Positions 1 through 59,684 of a DNA stretch of 64,000 nt are shown here, piece by piece. Made by a program: the position numbers and the translations under genes. This DNA is from Bradyrhizobium guangdongense. Lineage in GTDB: Bacteria > Pseudomonadota > Alphaproteobacteria > Rhizobiales > Xanthobacteraceae. Numbering within the stretch: position 1 is the first letter of the stretch; each line of letters begins with the position of its first letter. The notes under the pieces were generated by a model. That model ran no database searches and was not told the origin of the DNA. It was given only the letters and a program-made list of their open reading frames with translations. Location: positions 7,095,501 to 7,159,500 of the forward strand of contig NZ_CP030051.1 of NCBI RefSeq assembly GCF_004114975.1, read 5' to 3'.

Positions 1-8
1 TCTTTCTG

Positions 9-35
9 GGGCCGGGTCGACGATCCGGCCCTTTT
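9..35 (+). terminator. Rho-independent terminator
   Basis: A GC-rich stem (GGGCCGG pairing with CCGGCCC, 9-nt loop) is followed directly by a T run. It probably ends a rightward gene lying before the window. Confidence 0.7.
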
Positions 36-210
36 CATTTGCAGCCGGCGGGCGTGAAAGCGAACCCATTTCGCCAGATCATCGTACCTTAGTTAGACTT
101 ATGAACTACTGTTCACCAAATGTAAGCAGTGCTGTCTTGTCACTGCACGCAAAGCGGGCGAGCTTGGTCCAATTGATTGAAGAATTTTGGGGCTCTCATC
201 GGAGTTGAAC

Positions 211-510
211 TTGACGATCGCCATCGTCCTGATCGTTGCAAGCGCGTTGGTGGGCGTAGCGACAGGTTACGTGTTCAGGACCTGGGCGCTGGTCGTGATC
301 TCGCCGCCAATTGCGGTCCTCTCGGCGATCATTCTGCGCGTCTACGAGTTCGGAATGATGGCGGGCGTGATCATCATTGCCGTCTGTCTTGCCGCCACTC
401 AGCTCGCCTATCTTGCGGCATCATATCTGCTGTACGGGCGCGAGGCCTCATCCCATGACGAAGTCGACGGCGAGCCAGGCGAGATAAGCGACCAGAAAAT
501 CCGCCGTTAG
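211..510 (+). CDS. Small three-TM membrane protein, unknown function
   Basis: About 99 aa with three hydrophobic stretches (roughly residues 2-21, 26-46 and 50-78) and a polar, acidic C-terminal tail, so probably an inner-membrane protein. The start chosen is TTG at 211 because GGAG at 201-204 lies 6 nt upstream; an in-frame TTG at 187 would add eight residues. The 3' end overlaps the convergent small ORF ending at 448. I recognise no family. Confidence 0.5.
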   Translation: MTIAIVLIVASALVGVATGYVFRTWALVVISPPIAVLSAIILRVYEFGMMAGVIIIAVCLAATQLAYLAASYLLYGREASSHDEVDGEPGEISDQKIRR

Positions 511-50602: not shown

Positions 50603-51898
50603 TCATCCTTCCCTTTCTCGCGCACACGTCGGACAGGAGGGACAAGCGGGTACCCCCGCCCACATCACGTTCGCGAATTGAAGCGGGGTCAAGTAGACCT
50701 GCTGCTCAAGGCCCGCAGAACTGAGCCCACCGCTGCGATGGCGCAGGAAATAGACCGCCGTCAGGAGGCCTGCCCAAAAGGACACGAAAGCCACGGTGGG
50801 AATGGGTGATGCGTCCAGGTCGTCATACGGATGGAGGCATTCAGCACATCCCCCGGAGCCTCGCTCATGATAGGAGGCCATGGCAGACCAATGCGTCGTT
50901 GCCCCGATGCCGAGCCATTGTGGCCCAGTTCGCTGGACGTACCAGCGCGAGGGAATATCGTCTACGCCGACGATCACCAACGGCCGCAGGGTGATATCGC
51001 TGTCGTCCTCGAAACGACGAGGCACCGGTTCGATTGCGATGCCTGTTCCCTCACAGATCTGTTGAAGATCCTTCGCTTTGGAGGCATCTCGGTGAGACCA
51101 GCGCAAGAGCATATAACGGTTGAGGTTCGAGAGGCCGGCGCTCTCGGGCTCGAAGACGCGCGAGCAGGCCTGCACTCCCGGCAGACGCGCCAGGACGTAC
51201 ATCAATGAGTGCGTGATAGCACCACCACTTACGCAATCGAAGTTTCCGAGGTCAGAGATGCAGCTCGTTTGAGGCGGTGCCAGCTGGAAACTCCCATCTT
51301 CGATCGGCGCAAACATCTCCATCATGATACCAGGATTGTGCGCGTGCGCCTTGAGGCTTCGCATGGCAATCTTGAAGGCTTCGGTTGCGGCCATTGCACC
51401 TGCCGCCATGCCGCCGATCGGCCAGGAGGTTCCCTGCCAGGGCGTTGCCCCCGTGTAGCGGGTGATTGTGCCCGTCCAGTCGCTGGCATTCAGACTGATT
51501 ACTTGGCTCGCTTGTACCGAGAGCGACGAATCACCCAACACTATGGCCAGATCGACATGACCATTCGGCACTTGGGTCTCGAAAGCGATCCCCGGAAGCA
51601 TGTCGCGCCCTATCTCGACTAGGCCGGTGACCAATGTCCTGCCGGAGAGCGGCGGCTGGACGCGAGATAACGCAACATCCGGAGCGATAAGGTGCACCCG
51701 GTGCGCAGATCGCGCCATCAAGATGGCCGCGGTGACAAATGCGGTCTGCGCAGAGTGCGTGGCGAGGTTTTCGGCATTTGCAGTGATCACTACTACTGTC
51801 TCGGTCAGCGCCGAGATCAGCATCTCGTCGTCGGCCGTCTGGCCAATGTCGTCGCGCATCAGCCGCAGGGTCCTGTCGAGCGCCTCTCTAAGACTCAT
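50603..51898 (-). CDS. E1/ThiF-like ubiquitin-activating enzyme, two-lobed
   Basis: 431 aa. The C-terminal half (about 205-431) is a ThiF/E1 adenylation domain: nucleotide loop CVSGGAITHS (222-231), the E1 segment GLSNLNRYMLL with Arg261, VGVDDIPSRW, and a zinc site CAEC (351-354) with CPSCPTC (419-425). The N-terminal half (30-182) looks like a degenerate copy of the same Rossmann fold, opening with ITANAENLATHS and closing with GGMAAGAMAATEAFK. E1 enzymes adenylate the C-terminus of a ubiquitin-like protein. The ATG overlaps the JAB stop by four bases. A Cys suited to thioester formation is not obvious, and no E2 gene is adjacent. Confidence 0.88.
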   Translation of the reverse strand: MSLREALDRTLRLMRDDIGQTADDEMLISALTETVVVITANAENLATHSAQTAFVTAAILMARSAHRVHLIAPDVALSRVQPPLSGRTLVTGLVEIGRDMLPGIAFETQVPNGHVDLAIVLGDSSLSVQASQVISLNASDWTGTITRYTGATPWQGTSWPIGGMAAGAMAATEAFKIAMRSLKAHAHNPGIMMEMFAPIEDGSFQLAPPQTSCISDLGNFDCVSGGAITHSLMYVLARLPGVQACSRVFEPESAGLSNLNRYMLLRWSHRDASKAKDLQQICEGTGIAIEPVPRRFEDDSDITLRPLVIVGVDDIPSRWYVQRTGPQWLGIGATTHWSAMASYHERGSGGCAECLHPYDDLDASPIPTVAFVSFWAGLLTAVYFLRHRSGGLSSAGLEQQVYLTPLQFANVMWAGVPACPSCPTCAREREG

Positions 51899-52335
51899 GT
51901 CAGCACCAAACGATCTTCGATCGCGACCTCTCGCCAGCGCCCATCCGTCTGGAGTTCGGTGAGATACGCTTCCTTGAATCCGACGGGACCCAGTGCAAAG
52001 TCAGGGATCACCAGCGATAGGAAGCCCGGCGTGTGGATGATCGGAAAGCTATCGTCGGTCGCAGAATGAAAGGCGTGCCGTGGATGCGTGTGTGCCTGCA
52101 GACGGATGCCCAAGTCGGCGTCGGCCAGCTCGCACCAGAACGCGTTTAACCAAGACTCCTCAACGACGAAACCGCCGAAATGTGCAACATGCTTCGGGTG
52201 GACCACTTGGGTGATAGTCTCGGGCCGTGACCAAGGGCTCAACCAGAGCATCTGGCATTCCTCCTCCCCTCGTCCGCACTGCCGGAAGTGTCGGAAGGTT
52301 TCCTCAACCAATGCATGCGCGATTTGGTAGACCAT
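51895..52335 (-). CDS. JAB/JAMM deubiquitinase-like metallopeptidase
   Basis: 146 aa. The JAMM zinc site is visible: an upstream Glu in RGEEECQML (about 24-26), then His82-x-His84 in AHTHP, and Ser91-x2-Asp94 in HSATDD. JAB proteins cut after the C-terminal glycine of ubiquitin-like proteins. The gene begins 1 nt after the ubiquitin-like stop, and its ribosome site AAGGGAGG lies within the last codons of that gene. It overlaps the E1 gene, so the three are one translational unit. Probable job: trimming the Ala from the Gly-Gly-Ala tail and/or deconjugation. Confidence 0.88.
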   Translation of the reverse strand: MVYQIAHALVEETFRHFRQCGRGEEECQMLWLSPWSRPETITQVVHPKHVAHFGGFVVEESWLNAFWCELADADLGIRLQAHTHPRHAFHSATDDSFPIIHTPGFLSLVIPDFALGPVGFKEAYLTELQTDGRWREVAIEDRLVLT

Positions 52336-52336
52336 C

Positions 52337-52750
52337 TCATGCGCCTCCCTTCACTGCACTCGGCCGCAGGAGCAGCTCATCGTGGGGCTTCACGCCGGCC
52401 TGCTTGAGGGTCTCGCCGTCGGGCAGCTCCTCGCCGTCCTTGTTGTAGAGCGAGAGCATGTGCGGATTGGGAATCGAACCGAAGGCGCCGATCGCCTGGT
52501 TGAGGAGTTGCTTCACGGTTTCCTCCGGCCGGACTTCAAACGGCTTTTTAAGGCCGTTATAGATAACCTTCAGGGGAAACTGCTTCGCGTGAGCGAGCTC
52601 GTGGATCGCCTTTTTCAACTCGTCTTCCGCCTCGCCAACCTCACGGGCCGCTTCACGGCCCTTTTCTAGGGCCAGCTCAAGGTCGTGCTCGGCACGGTGC
52701 AGGTGCTCGACGGCTTCCACCGGGTCACTGCCGGTATTCTCGGTCATCAT
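52337..52750 (-). CDS. Ubiquitin-like beta-grasp protein with Gly-Gly-Ala tail (DUF2604-like)
   Basis: 137 aa from ATG at 52750, chosen because GGAG lies about 6 nt upstream (a second ATG follows at once); the open frame continues upstream through the operators without a better site. Residues 8-56 form a charged helix or coiled coil. Residues 57-131 are beta-grasp-like (FPLKVIYNGLKKPFEV, ETVKQLLNQAIG, LSLYNKDGEELPD, LLLRPSAV). The end is Lys-Gly-Gly-Ala, so cleavage of one residue would expose Gly-Gly. It resembles the DUF2604 ubiquitin-like proteins found with JAB and E1 genes; that name is from memory. First gene of the operon. Confidence 0.85.
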   Translation of the reverse strand: MMTENTGSDPVEAVEHLHRAEHDLELALEKGREAAREVGEAEDELKKAIHELAHAKQFPLKVIYNGLKKPFEVRPEETVKQLLNQAIGAFGSIPNPHMLSLYNKDGEELPDGETLKQAGVKPHDELLLRPSAVKGGA

Positions 52751-52784
52751 TGATCTCCGTTCATTGCGAGTTATGAAACGCGCC

Positions 52785-52800
52785 GCCTGATAAAGTAGGC
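52785..52800. promoter_or_regulatory. Operator-like palindrome copy 1
   Basis: GCCTGATAAAGTAGGC, a 16-bp dyad with outer arms GCCT/AGGC, just downstream of the expected start of ubiquitin-like operon transcription. Confidence 0.65.
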
Positions 52801-52807
52801 AGAGCTT

Positions 52808-52823
52808 GCGTGATATAACAGGC
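52808..52823. promoter_or_regulatory. Operator-like palindrome copy 2, over the -10
   Basis: GCGTGATATAACAGGC, a 16-bp match to copies 1 and 3, spaced 23 bp from copy 1. It covers the -10 hexamer of the leftward promoter, so a bound protein would block transcription of the ubiquitin-like operon. Confidence 0.7.
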
Positions 52824-52840
52824 ATTGCTTGATTAGTCAA
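52812..52840 (-). promoter_or_regulatory. Sigma70-like promoter of the ubiquitin-like operon
   Basis: On the minus strand TTGACT (52840-52835) is followed after exactly 17 bp by TATATC (52817-52812). The first gene starts 62 bp beyond. This is a good match to -35/-10 consensus and spacing. Confidence 0.65.
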
Positions 52841-52855
52841 ATTATTGTGGACGCC

Positions 52856-52871
52856 GCCTGATATTTCAGGC
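52856..52871. promoter_or_regulatory. Operator-like palindrome copy 3
   Basis: GCCTGATATTTCAGGC, a perfect 6-4-6 palindrome 38 bp before the XRE gene start, where its own promoter should lie. It suggests autoregulation by that repressor. Confidence 0.7.
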
Positions 52872-52909
52872 ACACTGCTGAGGAATCAACCGACTACGCC
52901 GGGAAGCCC

Positions 52910-53272
52910 GTGAGCCTGTCCAAGCTACTGAAAAAGATTCGCACCATTCATGGTGCCAGCCTTCGAGCGGTCGAGGATGCGACCGGCATCTCGAACGCCT
53001 ATCTGTCTCAACTCGAGCGAGGCGACGCCGAAAATCCGACGCCCAGAAAGCTAAAGGCGCTCGCTGATTTTTATAACTATCCCTACACCGAACTGATGCG
53101 CGCCGCCGGTTACACCGAAGAAAGCGAGCCGCCGCAGACAGCCAGCAGCACGCGCGGGAACGCGAGGGTAAGCTCGATCCAGGCGGCGCTCATGAGCGCC
53201 AACCTCACGCCCGAAGAGGAGGAAGCAGTCGTGAAGTACATCGAATTCCTTCGCTTCCAGAATAAGAAATGA
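52910..53272 (+). CDS. XRE-family repressor (CapH-like)
   Basis: 120 aa. Helix-turn-helix at 7-62: LKKIRTIHGASLRAVEDATGISNAYLSQLERGDAENPTP (shown by its two halves GASLRAVEDATGISNAYLSQ and the recognition helix SQLERG). A linker (70-85) and a short C-terminal helix LTPEEEEAVVKYIEFLRFQ follow, probably for dimerisation. The start is GTG at 52910. It is 10 nt from the metallopeptidase gene, and divergent from the ubiquitin-like operon. It is most likely the repressor that binds the three palindromes. The pair resembles CapH/CapP regulators beside CBASS operons. Confidence 0.85.
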   Translation: MSLSKLLKKIRTIHGASLRAVEDATGISNAYLSQLERGDAENPTPRKLKALADFYNYPYTELMRAAGYTEESEPPQTASSTRGNARVSSIQAALMSANLTPEEEEAVVKYIEFLRFQNKK

Positions 53273-53282
53273 GGAATGGACC

Positions 53283-54185
53283 ATGGCCTTGCCCAGACAG
53301 AAGATCGCAGCAAGGCCAGAGTCAGAATCAGAACTCTCAGAGCTTTCTCGCAAACTCATCCGAGCCGCCGATGCGGTCAGCGTTTTGCCGACCCCAATCG
53401 ATCGACTCTTCGAGGTTGCGAAGATCACCAACATCGAGGCCCTGCCCGACGAAGCGTTCCTCCGGACCTTATCGGAGAAGGCGCGTAGCTCCTTCGTCAC
53501 CGCCTGGCAGAAACTTCGGGGCGTTGCAGACCTCCGCACCAAGACGGTCTACATTCCGCCGGAGAGGAACACCGGGCGCAAGCTGTTCGTGAAGGCCCAT
53601 GAACTGGGTCACCAAGTCATCCCGTGGCACAAGATCGATCCGGCATACCTCGACGACAACGAGACCCTGGGCCCCCATGCGACCGGCATCTTCGAACACG
53701 AAGCGAACTTCTTCGGGGCGGAAACGATCTTCCAGGGCAAGAACTTTCGCCTTCTCGCCCGCGACTACCAGCCAAGCGTAGGTACGATTTTCAGCCTCGC
53801 CGACAGGCATGGCGCTTCCAAACAAGCGACGGCGTGGCGCTACGTCGAAGAGCAAGACGAGGCGCTCGCACTCCTGCAATACTATCCCGGCAATGCCATC
53901 GATGAGGCCGGCAATCGCGTACTCTACATTTGGCGTAGCGTTGGATCACCCGCATTCAGCGCGAAATTTTCAGCCATCGACGTGCCTGAGGTATTGCGCA
54001 TCGGTCATCCATGGCTGGCCGCGCGAGAGAAGGAGCAGGGCGTCGATGGCAACGACAACTTTTTGGTTGATGGACACCCAGCGGTATTTCAATGGATCGC
54101 GTGGTGGAATTCATACACGCTGTTCGTGCTCTTGCGCCGGAAGCCGATGCTCAGCGTCGTCGGCGGGATTCTACGCCGTTCTTGA
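53283..54185 (+). CDS. ImmA/IrrE-type metallopeptidase (CapP-like)
   Basis: 300 aa. The zinc motif HELGH is at 106-110 (VKAHELGHQVIPWH), with the third ligand probably Glu in FEHEANFFGAETI. This is COG2856, whose members cut a partner XRE repressor: ImmA on ImmR, IrrE on DdrO, CapP on CapH. The residues after about 200 form a possible sensor domain. The ATG at 53283 follows GAGGAATGGACC and lies 10 nt after the repressor gene. Inferred role: activated by damage or infection, it cleaves the XRE repressor and releases the ubiquitin-like operon. Confidence 0.88.
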   Translation: MALPRQKIAARPESESELSELSRKLIRAADAVSVLPTPIDRLFEVAKITNIEALPDEAFLRTLSEKARSSFVTAWQKLRGVADLRTKTVYIPPERNTGRKLFVKAHELGHQVIPWHKIDPAYLDDNETLGPHATGIFEHEANFFGAETIFQGKNFRLLARDYQPSVGTIFSLADRHGASKQATAWRYVEEQDEALALLQYYPGNAIDEAGNRVLYIWRSVGSPAFSAKFSAIDVPEVLRIGHPWLAAREKEQGVDGNDNFLVDGHPAVFQWIAWWNSYTLFVLLRRKPMLSVVGGILRRS

Positions 54186-54225: not shown

Positions 54226-55788
54226 TCACCACTCATTGTCGTGCATTCGGCTCACATAAATTGGTGAATGGGCCCGCAGACCTACCTTGTGCGACACAAA
54301 GCTTCCTGGCGAGGTCGTAATAGCTATCACGCCCGGCGCACGAAGGCCCGCGACACACTGAACGCCGGTGGTGGCGCTGCCGACCTGCGTTATGATCAAG
54401 ACCTCGCCAAGTTTCGAGCGATTGCCTGTGAAGAGAGCCGGCAAGCTAAATTCGACCATCCAGAACCAATCCGGGAGAGCGTCTGTCAACTTGACTTCTG
54501 CGTCGCTAAGTCGAGATCTGTCATGCCCTTCCGAAGACCGAAGATGCTCCTGATACCCTTTCTTATCCATCAAGATCGGCCGCATTACGAAGGGGTTCGT
54601 CTGCTGTACAAGATATTGGTACCATCTGCCATTGTCGAACGAAGGATTGCCGTACAGAAACCGCTTTATCACCACGGAAGCTAGGCCTTCCGCCCAGTGG
54701 GGTAGAATGTCCGGCTGATGAGGATGGACACCAATAATAAACGAGGCCTTGATCAAAGGATCCACCTCGAATGCACGACTGCTGAGCGTATAGTAGGTGC
54801 CCAGATTGTCATCGTGAATTACGAAGTGATCAACCCACGCGCTGCTACGATAGAACGGCGCCGTCGAGGGACCGCTATAGCCGGGAATCGCTTGCGGATG
54901 CCACTCGTCGGAATTTCTCGTGTACCCGAACGCCGTAACCACATGCTCGATATTGGTCTGGCCCGTCGTGAAAACGAAAAGAACGATAAAGCCCGACTCT
55001 ACGTACGCCGTCAGGAGCGAGAGATACTCCGGCGCAGACAGGGTCGCACAATTGACGACTACTGGCTTAGTCCCTGTTCGCATCGCAATCACGTCTTCTA
55101 CATTGCCGACGGACAGACCGGAGATTGGCGGTGCAAGACCCAGCTGCGAATTTATGTCCGCGCTTGAAAGAAGCGCCTGCGAGCCGTCGATCGAGTTAAG
55201 CGCCATGCGCAAGCATGCATGAGCGCAAACATGGATTACGTTATTCTGCTGACAATAATAGAAACCGGAAACACTGAAATCTCGTCCACGCACTGCTCGC
55301 GTAAACGTAGTGTCTCGACATATGTAGTTGTTCAACAGCCGCTTTGTCGTGCCGTCTTCCGATCGCTGGTGCGGCGCGGCCACGATCGCTTCATAGATGT
55401 ACGAATGCAGGAAATCAGCGTTGGGCGGGGCATAGTTTATGATGGTTGCAGCTGCAATCAGCGCATCGGCATCAACATCGTCGATGTTTTCCGCCGATTT
55501 CTCGCCACGAAAGAAAGATAGCTGGATTGCTGAAGCGCGGCCGCCGCCGCCATAGTGCCTGTCAAGATTATCGATCTCTTGTGCGATCGGCGCCTGACCA
55601 AGAGCACATTCGCGGACGACAAAGCTCGCGCCTTGTTTTCTCGCCAGCGTACAAATGCGATGAAGGGAGAGATTGTTCGACGTCCCTGATCGCGGCGACT
55701 TCCAAGCGCCTTCGATCAAATCAAAGTAGAAAGAAAAAGGGAGATGGCAATCGAGGCAAGTCTCGTCCGTCGTCTCCCCAGTCCACAT
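54226..55788 (-). CDS. Papain/C39-like cysteine protease candidate
   Basis: 520 aa, no family recognised with certainty. An early Cys pair (DETCLDCHLPF, 11-14) may bind zinc. The middle has a papain-like arrangement: Gln180/181 then Cys188 in YCQQNNVIHVCAHACLRMAL, His282 in NIEHVVTAFGYT, and Asp326/327 in FVIHDDNLGTYY. This Gln-Cys-His-Asp order fits peptidase C39-like enzymes. No membrane segment or ABC domain is visible, so it is not a classical exporter. It lies 15 nt after a 60-aa ORF. Ribosome site is weak. Confidence 0.6.
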   Translation of the reverse strand: MWTGETTDETCLDCHLPFSFYFDLIEGAWKSPRSGTSNNLSLHRICTLARKQGASFVVRECALGQAPIAQEIDNLDRHYGGGGRASAIQLSFFRGEKSAENIDDVDADALIAAATIINYAPPNADFLHSYIYEAIVAAPHQRSEDGTTKRLLNNYICRDTTFTRAVRGRDFSVSGFYYCQQNNVIHVCAHACLRMALNSIDGSQALLSSADINSQLGLAPPISGLSVGNVEDVIAMRTGTKPVVVNCATLSAPEYLSLLTAYVESGFIVLFVFTTGQTNIEHVVTAFGYTRNSDEWHPQAIPGYSGPSTAPFYRSSAWVDHFVIHDDNLGTYYTLSSRAFEVDPLIKASFIIGVHPHQPDILPHWAEGLASVVIKRFLYGNPSFDNGRWYQYLVQQTNPFVMRPILMDKKGYQEHLRSSEGHDRSRLSDAEVKLTDALPDWFWMVEFSLPALFTGNRSKLGEVLIITQVGSATTGVQCVAGLRAPGVIAITTSPGSFVSHKVGLRAHSPIYVSRMHDNEW

Positions 55789-56669: not shown

Positions 56670-59600
56670 TCATTGATTTCCATCGTTCTTCGACGGATGG
56701 TCGTAGCGCCGCTTCCGCATCTCCAGTTCCTCTTCACTGCGGCGCTGTTCAGCTGCGATTTGGCGATCGAGGCTCGCCAAATACTCGTTGGCGAACGATC
56801 GAACCCGCTCGTCTGGGTCCGAAAGCCAAGGTTCGAGCGCGTCTCGTTTACGCCGGTACGCCTCCACCAATCCGAACTCTCCGCTGACGACCCCCGTCGC
56901 ATCCAGCACCAAAATGACGCTGTTGCGCAGATCGTCGTCCGCCGGAAGGCGTCGGATGATCTCCTTGCACAATGACTCGAGAAACGACTCACCATCATAC
57001 GCGGATAGGATGCTGATCGTGAATTCGAGGTCATCGCGCGTACCGCCGACAACTAGCGACATCAACCTGCGATCGAGTTCCTCTGAGAATGCGGGAAACG
57101 CGGCGGACAGGAGGCGCCCGCCTGTGTACTGAAACATGTAGTCGCCGCTCTTAAAAAGCCGACGAACGGTATCGACCGCGTGATCTACGATCGCCTGAAA
57201 GCTCTTCTTCAATTCATAGAATTCGTAAGGCACCGCCTCATAACCGCGTGCGACATCCTTCGATGCAGACAATGCCAGTCGCTCTTCAAAGAAATCGAAC
57301 ACGCGTGTTGGGTGCTTGTTAGCAATCTGAATCAGAATGAATTCTGCATGCGTGTCGATGCGTGGAGCATGCAAAAGGTTTTGAAGGACCGCCTCCACGC
57401 CCTCACTGGTTAGATCGTGGATGAACGACTGCTCTGGCGAGACAAACCACGCCAAGTTGACCCATCGGGAATCTTTCTTTTGCGTGAAATACTCAATACC
57501 GGGCAACAGGACTTGATCTATCAGAGACTCGGTCCCATCGCTATATCGTCGAAACGCGGTTTCCAGAACCTGCACGATCACTCCTTCTTTGTCGAGCCGG
57601 ATACCCGCTTCGAGCAGCCGCTTCAGCTTCGCGCCATCGAACGCCTGAATAAACTTGAGAGAATGCGCGATCTCTACAAGATACTGATCTTCAGCTAGCC
57701 ACCGCTCTATCCGCTCCTCCAGCGCGGCGGCCTGGCTGCTCTGCGCTAAACCTGACAGCATGATGCCGAGAAACCCCGTCAGCGGTCTTTCTATCTTGTC
57801 AATAAAACCAAGCGTGATTGAAGGCCTTGCTTGGCTAAGCCGCCGGAGAAATTCCCCGAAACTAGGAAACGTCGCTAAATCGTCTGACTTCGTCTGTGCG
57901 CAGCGATTGATGATCTTGAACCAATCATCTGCATTCTTCTCGGTAACCTCAGCCACCAGTTCGTCTATACGCTTACTCCGATACTCTCGCTCTTCCTCAT
58001 AGCGCATGCTGTCCCACTGCCACATCGGTGGGAAGACGCACTCAAAGCCAACCAAGACGTTGTAGATTGCAAATCCTGCATTGGCCTCTGCTCGCGCGCG
58101 GAAAGACTGAATACTCATGTCCAACCGCTCGGCAGCCTTGAGAACCGCAGGACCGATATCTTCGGCGACACCAACGCCCTTGTTTCGGCGGTGCAACCAA
58201 AGCAGTTTGCGCTGGATGCTTTGGATGATCTCATAATCGTCGGTCGCTGCAACATCAGCGAAGAAATCAGCCACGCGAGCGCTGTCGTTGAGTATGTCGG
58301 CAAGGAGTTCGTTTGAATAATTCGAAGAAATCGGCATTGCTGCGGCAGCAAAGAGGACGCGCTTGATCTGCGTTTTTTCATCGATCGAGCCGGCCGCACT
58401 ATAGAATTTGCAGAGGATGTCGATCGCTTCAGCACGCACGCCGCGCAGTGCATCGCTGGCAACGACTGATCCACGATGAAAGGTCATAGTGTTGTAGGTG
58501 CTTGTTGTACCATGCACTTCTGTACCAAGCGCGTCTTCGAGGATCTTGAGAAGCACTGGCAAGACCGGCGCGAGAGCGCCAGCAAAGTCACGAACCTTCC
58601 GCACGAGCGCTATCTGCACTGCAGGCCCAGCCTGCTTCCACACTTGCATTTCTTGGGCCGAGAGACGATGAACAAGATCGAGAAGATGCTTGCGCTCATC
58701 ATCGTCCAAGGCGCCGGGAAACACTTCGCATATCGCATCGAACGTGCCCTCAACCGACACGTATCGGATCTGTCCTAGTATGTCGCAAGCAGCATTCACG
58801 ACACGCGCCGCATTCGCGCCGGCAAATCGGCCGCCCGGTGTCTCGATTTCCCGCGGCTTCGTCAGGCGCGCCGCCTTGATCGCCGCGATGATACCGTCCT
58901 TGATCTCAGGGAAGACGCTTACGTGATCATCGTAATGGGGCAGCACGTAGTCCCGGAACCGCTCAAGAAGTTCTAGCCGCGCGTTATTGTCCGCACAATC
59001 CGCAAGCGCCTTCAGCGCGCCCCGGTCAAAGAGCTCTTTACCGCTCAGCAGACGATCGTAATCGCTGAGCGCCTTCTGAAACTCATAGCCAGCAGGAAGC
59101 AGGTACGTTTTCATAATCGTCTCGAAGCGTTGCTCGATCGCCTCGAAGAGTTTTCCGCCGAAACCTGCCAGTTTAGGTTTCTTATAGAGAATGTCGTGGA
59201 CCATTTCGGACCACGTGTGGTTCAGCGTCGTCTGCACTTGCACTTCGCAAGCAAGTCCCGAAAATCGCGCATACTCCGGGAGCTTTGTTCGGTCGTCCTT
59301 CAGCGAAACAACGAAGTTGTCCGAGATGAAAAGGTTCTTCGGATCGCCCTCGCCCGGCACGGGGTGATGAATCTTCGTCCGCTTCCAATCGACGTCGAAG
59401 TTATCGGTGATAATGCCGCTGCGCTGGAAGCGAGTGACATCTTCATTCGAGTAGAAAATCAGACGGCAGCCAGCCAGGTCTTTTATATCCTGAGCTAACG
59501 TCGTCGTATCTAGCTTGCCACGATCCTCAAGCTTTTTCTTGAGCGACCCTGGGTCCTTCGCCCGCGCCTGCACTAGCTGCAGCCGAAACGGGGCGCCGAT

Positions 59601-59684
59601 CGCCGCCCTAAGGATCGAGGCGACAACATCGGCTAAGGCCGCATAGTCGGCCCGCTTGGAGCTGGTGTAAGTTTGAAAATCCAT
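56670..59684 (-). CDS. RelA/SpoT nucleotidyltransferase-domain protein with long C-terminal region
   Basis: 1004 aa. Residues 38-185 match the (p)ppGpp synthetase fold: RAKDPGSLKKKL (41-52), DIKDLAGCRLIFYSNED (66-82) and EVQVQTTLNHTWSEMVH (147-163) with the catalytic-type Glu147. The segment normally Tyr-x-Ser-x-His reads FISDN (119-123), so substrate use may differ from ppGpp synthesis. The remaining 800 residues look helical and HEAT-like, and are much longer than in small alarmone synthetases or toxSAS toxins. The context suggests a defence effector. No strong ribosome site precedes ATG 59684. Confidence 0.75.
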   Translation of the reverse strand: MDFQTYTSSKRADYAALADVVASILRAAIGAPFRLQLVQARAKDPGSLKKKLEDRGKLDTTTLAQDIKDLAGCRLIFYSNEDVTRFQRSGIITDNFDVDWKRTKIHHPVPGEGDPKNLFISDNFVVSLKDDRTKLPEYARFSGLACEVQVQTTLNHTWSEMVHDILYKKPKLAGFGGKLFEAIEQRFETIMKTYLLPAGYEFQKALSDYDRLLSGKELFDRGALKALADCADNNARLELLERFRDYVLPHYDDHVSVFPEIKDGIIAAIKAARLTKPREIETPGGRFAGANAARVVNAACDILGQIRYVSVEGTFDAICEVFPGALDDDERKHLLDLVHRLSAQEMQVWKQAGPAVQIALVRKVRDFAGALAPVLPVLLKILEDALGTEVHGTTSTYNTMTFHRGSVVASDALRGVRAEAIDILCKFYSAAGSIDEKTQIKRVLFAAAAMPISSNYSNELLADILNDSARVADFFADVAATDDYEIIQSIQRKLLWLHRRNKGVGVAEDIGPAVLKAAERLDMSIQSFRARAEANAGFAIYNVLVGFECVFPPMWQWDSMRYEEEREYRSKRIDELVAEVTEKNADDWFKIINRCAQTKSDDLATFPSFGEFLRRLSQARPSITLGFIDKIERPLTGFLGIMLSGLAQSSQAAALEERIERWLAEDQYLVEIAHSLKFIQAFDGAKLKRLLEAGIRLDKEGVIVQVLETAFRRYSDGTESLIDQVLLPGIEYFTQKKDSRWVNLAWFVSPEQSFIHDLTSEGVEAVLQNLLHAPRIDTHAEFILIQIANKHPTRVFDFFEERLALSASKDVARGYEAVPYEFYELKKSFQAIVDHAVDTVRRLFKSGDYMFQYTGGRLLSAAFPAFSEELDRRLMSLVVGGTRDDLEFTISILSAYDGESFLESLCKEIIRRLPADDDLRNSVILVLDATGVVSGEFGLVEAYRRKRDALEPWLSDPDERVRSFANEYLASLDRQIAAEQRRSEEELEMRKRRYDHPSKNDGNQ

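What the first reader, a model, noticed from the sequence alone, without database searches (positions are those of the whole stretch)
50603..54185. Ubiquitin-like/JAB/E1 operon without E2, under a CapH/CapP-like repressor-protease pair
Seen: one leftward unit encodes a beta-grasp protein ending Gly-Gly-Ala, a JAMM peptidase and a two-lobed E1-like enzyme, with a 1-nt gap and a 4-nt overlap. A divergent XRE repressor and HELGH metallopeptidase share its control region. Known: bacterial E1/E2/JAB/ubiquitin-like sets (Bil) and CBASS Cap2/Cap3 act in phage defence, and CapH/CapP pairs regulate CBASS. Inference: here the same kind of damage-sensing switch controls a minimal ubiquitin-like conjugation or activation system, in which the E1 works without an E2 or borrows one. 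I know of no functional description of this exact combination.
Basis: partly seen in the sequence, partly recalled or inferred. Interest (0 to 1): 0.9.

Follow-up and report, generated by a model that had tools for sequence, protein, structure and literature searches.

The report
Ubiquitin-like operon lacking E2 and E1 cysteine
A bacterial genomic island carries a stripped-down ubiquitin-like system that has lost both its transfer enzyme and the reactive cysteine of its activating enzyme, and the same stripped-down set turns up in several bacterial phyla and one phage contig, so it may attach or activate its ubiquitin-like protein by a different chemistry.

The parts
50603..51898 (-). E1-like adenylating enzyme, BilD-related, two lobes, no catalytic-cysteine domain
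   Evidence: (BilD 1.6e-17)
50795..50836 (-). short crossover loop of the E1 (residues 355-368, 14 aa) in place of the ~80-aa cysteine domain; His356 and Thr368 are family-specific
   Evidence: coordinates worked out from the ORF
50837..50848 (-). first CxxC (C351, C354) of a predicted zinc site; its partner C422/C425 lies at 50624-50635
   Evidence: invariant in A1; CxxC kept beside a separate catalytic Cys in E2-linked relatives; zinc binding is inferred from ThiF/MoeB
51895..52335 (-). JAB/JAMM metallopeptidase, BilC-like, motif EC...HTHP..HSATDD
   Evidence: (BilC 2.8e-12)
52337..52750 (-). ubiquitin-like protein: N-terminal helix (residues 10-53) plus beta-grasp domain ending VKGGA
   Evidence: (DUF2604 1.5e-4 and ubiquitin 8.1e-4, both under the curated cut-off)
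52785..52800 (.). operator-like repeat GCCTGATAAAGTAGGC
52808..52823 (.). operator-like repeat GCGTGATATAACAGGC
52856..52871 (.). operator-like palindrome GCCTGATATTTCAGGC
52910..53272 (+). XRE-family repressor, CapH-like
   Evidence: HTH_3 1.3e-10; HTH_VI 4e-10, capH 1e-6
53283..54185 (+). M78 (ImmA/IrrE-type) metallopeptidase with HELGH, CapP-like
   Evidence: Peptidase_M78 5.2e-9; capP 1.9e-16

Best explanation
A Bil-related ubiquitin-like system reduced to three genes that activates its Ubl without any thioester relay. Steps: (1) JAB trims the Ubl precursor (...VKGG-A) to Gly-Gly [inferred; natural Ubl-JAB fusions support it]; (2) the E1 adenylates the terminal glycine with ATP [inferred from invariant adenylation residues and fold]; (3) with neither a catalytic cysteine in the E1 nor a Bil-type E2 [both absences shown], the Ubl-adenylate is attacked directly by the acceptor, most likely an amine of a target protein, giving an E2-free conjugate that JAB can remove [inferred]; (4) the XRE protein represses the operon and the M78 peptidase destroys the repressor when DNA damage or phage DNA processing is sensed [inferred from CapH/CapP]. 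Likely role: anti-phage or inter-element conflict, carried on islands, plasmids and at least one phage contig.
For: Co-loss: 24 of 24 E2-less E1s lack the cysteine domain and any loop Cys, 12 of 12 E2-linked E1s have both; one branch at 100/100. The 119 of 120 listed protein hits that cover the site all have the same 14-residue loop without Cys. The lost residue is identified: L060, an NGR234 relative of the solved BilD, has Cys at exactly 417 and its E2 has Cys138/Glu144/His146/His151, the residues named for BilD and BilB in PMC11354881 (passages). Adenylation residues kept: N258, R261, K274, D313, R318 in 120 of 120. Bil E2 families in 0 of 29 genomes, positive controls ring. JAB motif visible in 25 of 31 loci. 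Ubl and JAB are one ORF joined at VKGG in L017, L018, L019. 23 of 69 Ubl homologues end exactly at GG and need no trimming; in six loci of that kind (L004, L005, L006, L009, L010, L061) JAB is still there, which argues for a deconjugating role. M78 peptidase over the Pfam cut-off in 19 of 23 assessable loci.
Against: No enzyme assay and no conjugate. MoeB also works without a thioester, but it feeds sulfur transfer, not conjugation, so adenylation alone does not prove conjugation. An unknown E2 fold, or an unrelated host acyl carrier or sulfur donor, would not be seen by the searches, and many of the genomes are MAGs. UQ_con hits one E2-less genome (G799, E 8e-8) and one more below its cut-off, and Prok-E2_B hits this genome inside an E2-ThiF fusion. 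A Cys does stand just past the loop, at position 371 in the crossover helix, in L003, L004 and at least 22 of the 120 hits, but it is Phe in the others, the window's E1 included. Generic XRE + ImmA/IrrE pairs also serve as plain mobile-element switches.
Confidence: 0.5

Rival explanations
1. Sulfur-carrier system: the E1 adenylates the Ubl only so that a host sulfurtransferase can make a C-terminal thiocarboxylate, as MoeB/MoaD or ThiF/ThiS do; JAB only matures the Ubl.
For: The E1 keeps a CxxC + CxxC pair as in MoeB/ThiF and has no loop Cys; Iyer et al. 2006 describe three-gene ThiS/MoaD + E1-rhodanese + JAB operons without E2 (PMC1779556, passages).
Against: The E1 shows no rhodanese domain; its fold and kinship are Bil-like, with two lobes. 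I noticed no rhodanese, cysteine desulfurase or biosynthetic gene beside the cassettes in the ORF lists, but the list was cut in the output and most of those neighbours were not profiled, so this is weak.
Confidence: 0.2
2. Ordinary Bil-type cascade that borrows an E2 from elsewhere in the cell.
For: This genome holds an E2-ThiF fusion of the CBASS kind on contig 2; one other genome (G799) has a UQ_con match.
Against: Bil E2 families in 0 of 29 genomes; Prok-E2_B in 1 of 30 and UQ_con over its cut-off in 1 of 30 genomes or records; the E1 lacks the cysteine that would hand Ubl to an E2.
Confidence: 0.07
3. Adenylated or otherwise nucleotide-tagged Ubl is itself the product (signal or inhibitor), as MccB makes a stable peptide-nucleotide; JAB turns it over.
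For: MccB structures are among the E1-fold matches and, from general knowledge, MccB has no E2 step.
Against: MccB needs a C-terminal Asn (recalled); here a Gly-Gly is kept.
Confidence: 0.1
4. A family-specific residue of the remodelled loop (His356 or Thr368) replaces the cysteine and carries the Ubl as an acyl intermediate.
For: His356 and Thr368 are 24 of 24 in E2-less and 0 of 12 in E2-linked E1s, 118 and 119 of 120 in the listed homologues.
Against: Threonine and histidine acyl intermediates are unusual in E1s (general knowledge); the residues may only be structural.
Confidence: 0.08
5. Degenerate, non-functional remnant of a Bil operon.
For: Remnants are seen among relatives (L027, L028, L029).
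Against: Intact frames, invariant active-site residues and conserved order in three phyla at long evolutionary distances.
Confidence: 0.03

Closest known systems
Bil (bacterial ISG15-like) BilABCD, solved as 8tyz/8tz0
   Different: No BilB E2; E1 without the ~80-aa cysteine domain and Cys417
Ubl + Metal_CEHH E2 + JAB + E1 operons of Bradyrhizobium and Rhizobium plasmids (L064, L075, L076)
   Same: Similar genes and the same kinds of upstream controllers: XRE+M78 (L064), WYL (L075), RES/Xre (L076)
   Different: They keep the E2 (Metal_CEHH over cut-off in all three) and an E1 loop of 80 residues with a Cys
Three-gene ThiS/MoaD + E1-rhodanese + JAB operons (Iyer et al. 2006, rows 4b, 4c)
   Same: Ubl, E1, JAB, no E2
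   Different: E1 there carries a rhodanese domain; here the E1 is two-lobed, Bil-like, without rhodanese
Archaeal SAMP / UbaA / HvJAMM1
   Same: Ubl system with a JAMM protease (abstracts in the search listing); that it has an E1 but no E2 is recalled
   Different: UbaA is a single-lobed MoeB-like E1 with a catalytic Cys (recalled); not tested here
CapH + CapP controllers of CBASS
   Same: XRE repressor with a neighbouring M78 peptidase beside a Ubl operon; PADLOC capH 1e-6, capP 1.9e-16
   Different: No test of ssDNA-activated cleavage

Membership tests
Bil (BilABCD) | Ubl (BilA), beta-grasp, C-terminal Gly-Gly | tested here: met
Bil (BilABCD) | JAB/JAMM peptidase (BilC) with intact motif | tested here: met
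Bil (BilABCD) | E1 (BilD) with two adenylation lobes | tested here: met
Bil (BilABCD) | E1 catalytic-cysteine domain with Cys417 | tested here: not met
   residue named in PMC11354881 (passage)
Bil (BilABCD) | E2 (BilB) | tested here: not met
   no Metal_CEHH or DUF7665 in the genome, controls ring; none in the operon. PADLOC BilB also found nothing, but rang in no control
Bil (BilABCD) | Protects against phage by conjugating Ubl to phage proteins | not testable with these tools
   no experiment; the role itself is recalled, its paper (Hor 2024) seen only as a reference
CapH/CapP controller | Neighbouring XRE and M78 genes beside an immune-type operon | tested here: met
CapH/CapP controller | ssDNA-activated CapP cleaves CapH | not testable with these tools
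   mechanism stated in PMC13373217 (passage), not assayed here
ThiF/MoeB sulfur-carrier operons | Rhodanese domain on the E1 or sulfur-transfer gene in the operon | tested here: not met
   E1 Pfam scan shows only a weak ThiF match; the operon has three genes only
CBASS Cap2/Cap3 | E1-E2 fusion and a CD-NTase in the operon | tested here: not met
   this genome's CBASS is on contig 2
Bub | Bub-type E1, E2, Ubl, peptidase set | not tested
   defining papers not held; no Bub models at hand

The most novel reading that the evidence does not exclude
A horizontally spreading family of prokaryotic ubiquitin-like systems that conjugates a Gly-Gly Ubl to proteins by direct attack on the E1-bound Ubl-adenylate, with neither an E1 nor an E2 thioester, the acceptor chemistry being run from a remodelled E1 crossover loop (family-specific His356/Thr368), reversed by JAB, and switched on by an M78 peptidase that in some lineages is fused to a UvrD helicase and PD-(D/E)XK nuclease.
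Probability: 0.33. Interest if true: 0.9.

Novelty: new variant of a known kind. Interest (0 to 1): 0.7.

Why it matters
Textbook ubiquitin-type conjugation passes the modifier through thioesters on E1 and E2. A conserved family that has dropped both at once, yet keeps the adenylation site, the diglycine tail and the JAB peptidase, would show a shorter route to protein conjugation, or a new use for an activated Ubl. It makes the question of which thioester steps are dispensable directly testable with three small proteins. It also adds to the catalogue of controllers (M78 pairs, RES/Xre pairs, M78-helicase-nuclease fusions) that sit on ubiquitin-like operons.

Tried and rejected
Hidden E2 as the E1 N-terminal lobe: rejected. 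The whole model aligns to both lobes of BilD (2..431 on 2..500), and the only invariant cysteines in the 24 rows of A1 are C351, C354, C422, C425.

C351/C354 as the catalytic cysteine: unlikely. The same CxxC, and cysteines near the C-terminal end, are kept in E2-linked 8tyz-type relatives that also have the separate Cys417.

BilB search in the own genome with the PADLOC model rang nowhere, controls included, so it is not used as evidence of absence; the Pfam searches with positive controls replaced it.

Site-specific insertion at tRNA-Gly: a script looking for shared words of 14 bases or more between the tRNA neighbourhood and the rest of the window or L079 printed nothing; the island rests on the G+C drop and an integrase only.

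Operator: the three repeats of the window were not found as such in L002, L003 or L064; L002 has an inverted repeat AATATCAAGCG/CGCTTGATATT that shares only the TGATATT core.

JAB motif counts: two stricter patterns of mine were wrongly spaced and found 0 of 31; the looser pattern showed the motif in 25 of 31 loci. The misses are L021, L022 (contig ends), L023 and L027-L029 (remnants); L023 has a JAB by profile whose motif was not matched.

Rows dropped: the tree uses 24 of 31 E2-less loci; L020 (near copy of L019), L021, L024, L025, L027, L028, L029 were left out as near-duplicate, truncated or broken. L022 counts as E2-less by genome search only, since its contig starts at the E1. In the E2-linked set, the E2 of L060, L063, L064, L075, L076 (Metal_CEHH), L066 (through its genome G589) and L030, L031, L032, L033 (DUF7665) is over the Pfam cut-off; in the haloarchaeal L062 and L077 the gene at the E2 position matches DUF7665 only below the cut-off (0.0034 and 0.01), so these two rest on position. 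The tree tool warns of long branches meeting among the E2-linked groups.

Regulator count: 23 of 31 loci were assessable; L012, L020, L021, L022, L024, L027, L028, L029 were dropped (near copy, contig end or remnant). M78 over the Pfam cut-off in 19; not in L005 and L006 (Xre antitoxin pairs; RES by Pfam in L006, while the L005 partner has no Pfam hit and is matched by BLAST to L006), L017 (a 305-aa HTH protein without M78) and L023 (none noticed beside it).

Phage records: 0 of 50,697. Plasmids: 3 of 72,556 records, of which one, L061, is E2-less. Viral contigs: 1 locus. The BilD family search over 385 alphaproteobacterial genomes gave 84 genomes with a hit, most of them weak.

Literature: Gong 2025, Ye 2026 and Chambers 2024 are not held; I read nothing of them. 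PF27312, a Pfam label on the E1 homologues, is not in the library here, so someone has already defined this domain. Burroughs-Aravind surveys after 2006 were not seen. Nine paper searches listed nothing that by title or opening of abstract describes an E2-less, cysteine-less Bil-type E1; that is not proof of absence. Passages sought in two papers for the E2-free SAMP and Urm1 cases gave none or only thiocarboxylate and catalytic-cysteine remarks.
Full report
What is there. On the minus strand of the window, from 52750 down to 50603, lie a 137-aa Ubl, a 146-aa JAB and a 431-aa E1, with a 1-nt gap and a 4-nt overlap. Opposite, from 52910, lie a 120-aa XRE protein and a 300-aa M78 peptidase with HELGH. 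The 160 bp between hold three copies of a GCCTGATA-n4-AGGC-like repeat at 52785, 52808 and 52856; a pattern made from them, with up to 2 mismatches, gives 15 matches in the window against 4.65 expected, 5 of the 15 at these three sites (the pattern is derived from the sites, so this is partly circular). The same repeats were not found in L002, L003 or L064; L002 shares only a TGATATT core within an inverted repeat.

The main result. In the 8tyz-type operon of NGR234 (L060) the E1 has Cys at position 417 and the neighbouring Metal_CEHH protein has Cys138, Glu144, His146, His151. A review gives exactly these as the catalytic Cys417 of BilD, within an approximately 80-aa cysteine domain, and as the CEHH motif of the E2 BilB (PMC11354881, passages read). 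The window's E1 passes from C354 to the crossover helix in 14 residues with no cysteine. In the tree of 36 E1s, 24 of 24 from E2-less loci have 14-15 residues and no Cys there; 12 of 12 from E2-linked loci have 34-94 residues with a Cys; the E2-less set is one side of a branch at 100/100, in 100% of 200 bootstrap trees. The 119 of the 120 listed protein hits that cover the site all show the 14-residue loop without Cys; 120 of 618 hits were listed. Against this: a Cys stands two residues into the crossover helix (position 371) in L003 and L004 and in at least 22 of the 120, where the others have Phe. The residues taken to be needed for adenylation are invariant in the 120 (N258, R261, K274, D313, R318; the assignment to function is from general knowledge of MoeB/ThiF). 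The CxxC...CxxC cysteines are kept. His356 and Thr368 are 24 of 24 in the E2-less and 0 of 12 in the E2-linked set.

Is an E2 elsewhere? Metal_CEHH and DUF7665 were searched in 36 genomes or records: 0 of the 29 genomes of E2-less loci (own genome plus 28) and 0 in the plasmid of L061; the known E2 carriers rang (4 of 4 for Metal_CEHH: records of L060, L063, L064 and genome G589; 2 of 2 for DUF7665: G373, G014). Prok-E2_B rang in 1 of 30, this genome, in a protein that also has a ThiF domain and lies between a DncV-like synthase and a Prok-JAB gene, with a patatin gene alongside: a type II CBASS on contig 2. UQ_con rang over its cut-off in 1 of 30 (G799) and below it in one more (G800). Many of these genomes are MAGs and may be incomplete.

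JAB and Ubl. The JAMM motif is visible in 25 of 31 loci (looser pattern). In L017, L018 and L019 (Acidobacteria) Ubl and JAB are one reading frame, joined just after ...RPNxVKGG (L020 is a near copy of L019). Of 69 Ubl homologues 23 end exactly at GG, 41 carry one further residue, 3 carry more, 2 show no GG near the end. In loci whose Ubl already ends at GG (L004, L005, L006, L009, L010, L061) JAB is kept, which suggests it also removes conjugates.

Spread. One scan of 84,980 species genomes gave 28 loci (pattern-based, a lower bound, three of them E1 remnants), in Alphaproteobacteria, Acidobacteriota and Actinomycetota. Among 397 genomes of the own order, 3 rang: the own one, and two with an E1 of the 8tyz type (E2 confirmed in G589; not checked in G689). 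One plasmid record (L061) and one viral contig (L068) carry the E2-less set; on L068 it sits with XRE and M78 among portal, head-maturation and head-tail genes, so phages or prophages can carry it. In the window the E1 gene ends 131 bp from a tRNA-Gly; G+C falls from 63-71% at 44-50 kb to 53-62% at 50-64 kb; an integrase in two overlapping frames lies some 12 kb beyond the cassette (L079 5666-6774). This fits a genomic island; no att repeat was found.

Control genes. M78 peptidases, over the Pfam cut-off, lie upstream in 19 of 23 assessable E2-less loci, often as a divergent XRE+M78 pair, sometimes fused to the HTH (L016, L025, L026), and in three Sphingomonas, two Brevundimonas and the Rhizobium plasmid (L009, L010, L011, L014, L015, L061) as one 1128-1144-aa protein joining M78 to a UvrD helicase and a PD-(D/E)XK nuclease domain (the nuclease is below its cut-off in L014). 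L005 and L006 have Xre/RES-type pairs instead, as has the E2-linked L076; L075 has a WYL gene. So controllers are swapped across E2-less and E2-linked operons. That CapP is activated by ssDNA and cleaves CapH is stated in PMC13373217 (introduction passage), as is the presence of CapW or CapH+CapP at 219 of 544 Bub operons (section 7).

Mechanism. Shown: gene set, folds, absence of the Bil E2 families, absence of the E1 cysteine domain, retention of adenylation and JAMM motifs, single-branch co-loss. Inferred: maturation at GG, adenylation, direct transfer from the adenylate, removal by JAB, damage-controlled expression, defence. I put direct conjugation first (0.5), the sulfur-carrier reading second (0.2), with nucleotide-tagged Ubl, a substitute residue, a borrowed E2 and decay behind.

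Membership. It is not a full member of Bil: two defining features, the E2 and the E1 cysteine, were tested and not met. It is a relative of Bil-type systems and may work like an E2-free conjugation system. E2-less three-gene ThiS/MoaD, E1-rhodanese, JAB operons were described in 2006 (PMC1779556, passages), but those E1s carry a rhodanese domain.

Novelty. The parts are of known kinds; the joint loss of E2 and of the E1 cysteine domain in a conserved, mobile, multi-phylum clade is what my nine paper searches did not show in print (listed under Tried and rejected). The key primary papers were not readable here, and Pfam has already labelled a domain in these E1s (PF27312), so the claim is provisional.

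Noticed in passing
L009 4260-7694, L010 4305-7691, L011 4259-7693, L014 4370-7759, L015 4371-7760, L061 4299-7718: A 1128-1144-aa protein fusing an M78 peptidase to a UvrD helicase and a PD-(D/E)XK-like nuclease domain stands just before a polyUbl-JAB-E1 set, in several loci after a ~190-aa protein without a solid Pfam match: possibly a peptidase controller wired directly to a DNA-processing motor.
   Followed up: partly
L005 6994-8130, L006 6933-8074, L076 2051-3140: Xre/RES-type toxin-antitoxin pairs lie divergently next to ubiquitin-like operons, both E2-less and E2-linked, where the M78 or WYL controller sits elsewhere.
   Followed up: partly
L061 (Rhizobium beringeri plasmid pRlX1) 1-10287: Two different ubiquitin-like operons back to back: multiubiquitin + ThiF + DUF6527, and sigma-70 factor + 191-aa protein + M78-UvrD protein + multiubiquitin + JAB + E2-less E1.
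   Followed up: no
G000 contig 2, L080 249-4703: The same genome carries a type II CBASS (patatin, DncV-like synthase, E2-ThiF fusion, Prok-JAB), so two ubiquitin-like systems coexist.
   Followed up: partly
window 54226-55788(-): 520-aa protein with a weak Peptidase_C39-like match (E 0.015, below cut-off), convergent with the M78 gene.
   Followed up: no
window 56670-59684(-): 1004-aa protein with an N-terminal RelA/SpoT-type domain (2.2e-9), scoring as PADLOC candidate PDC-S33 (6.8e-8), on the same low-G+C stretch.
   Followed up: no
L079 7723-12245 (beyond the window): A WD40-rich 1104-aa protein followed by a protein with a sub-cut-off NACHT match, beyond the integrase.
   Followed up: no
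L063 5899-7257: TIR-domain and caspase-family genes (as annotated) downstream of an 8tyz-type Ubl/E2/JAB/E1 operon on a Rhizobium plasmid.
   Followed up: no
L062 and L077 (haloarchaeal plasmids): Bil-like Ubl, E2-position gene, JAB, E1 sets with a short cysteine-bearing loop (PACAMAD, PACATLD) in the E1.
   Followed up: partly
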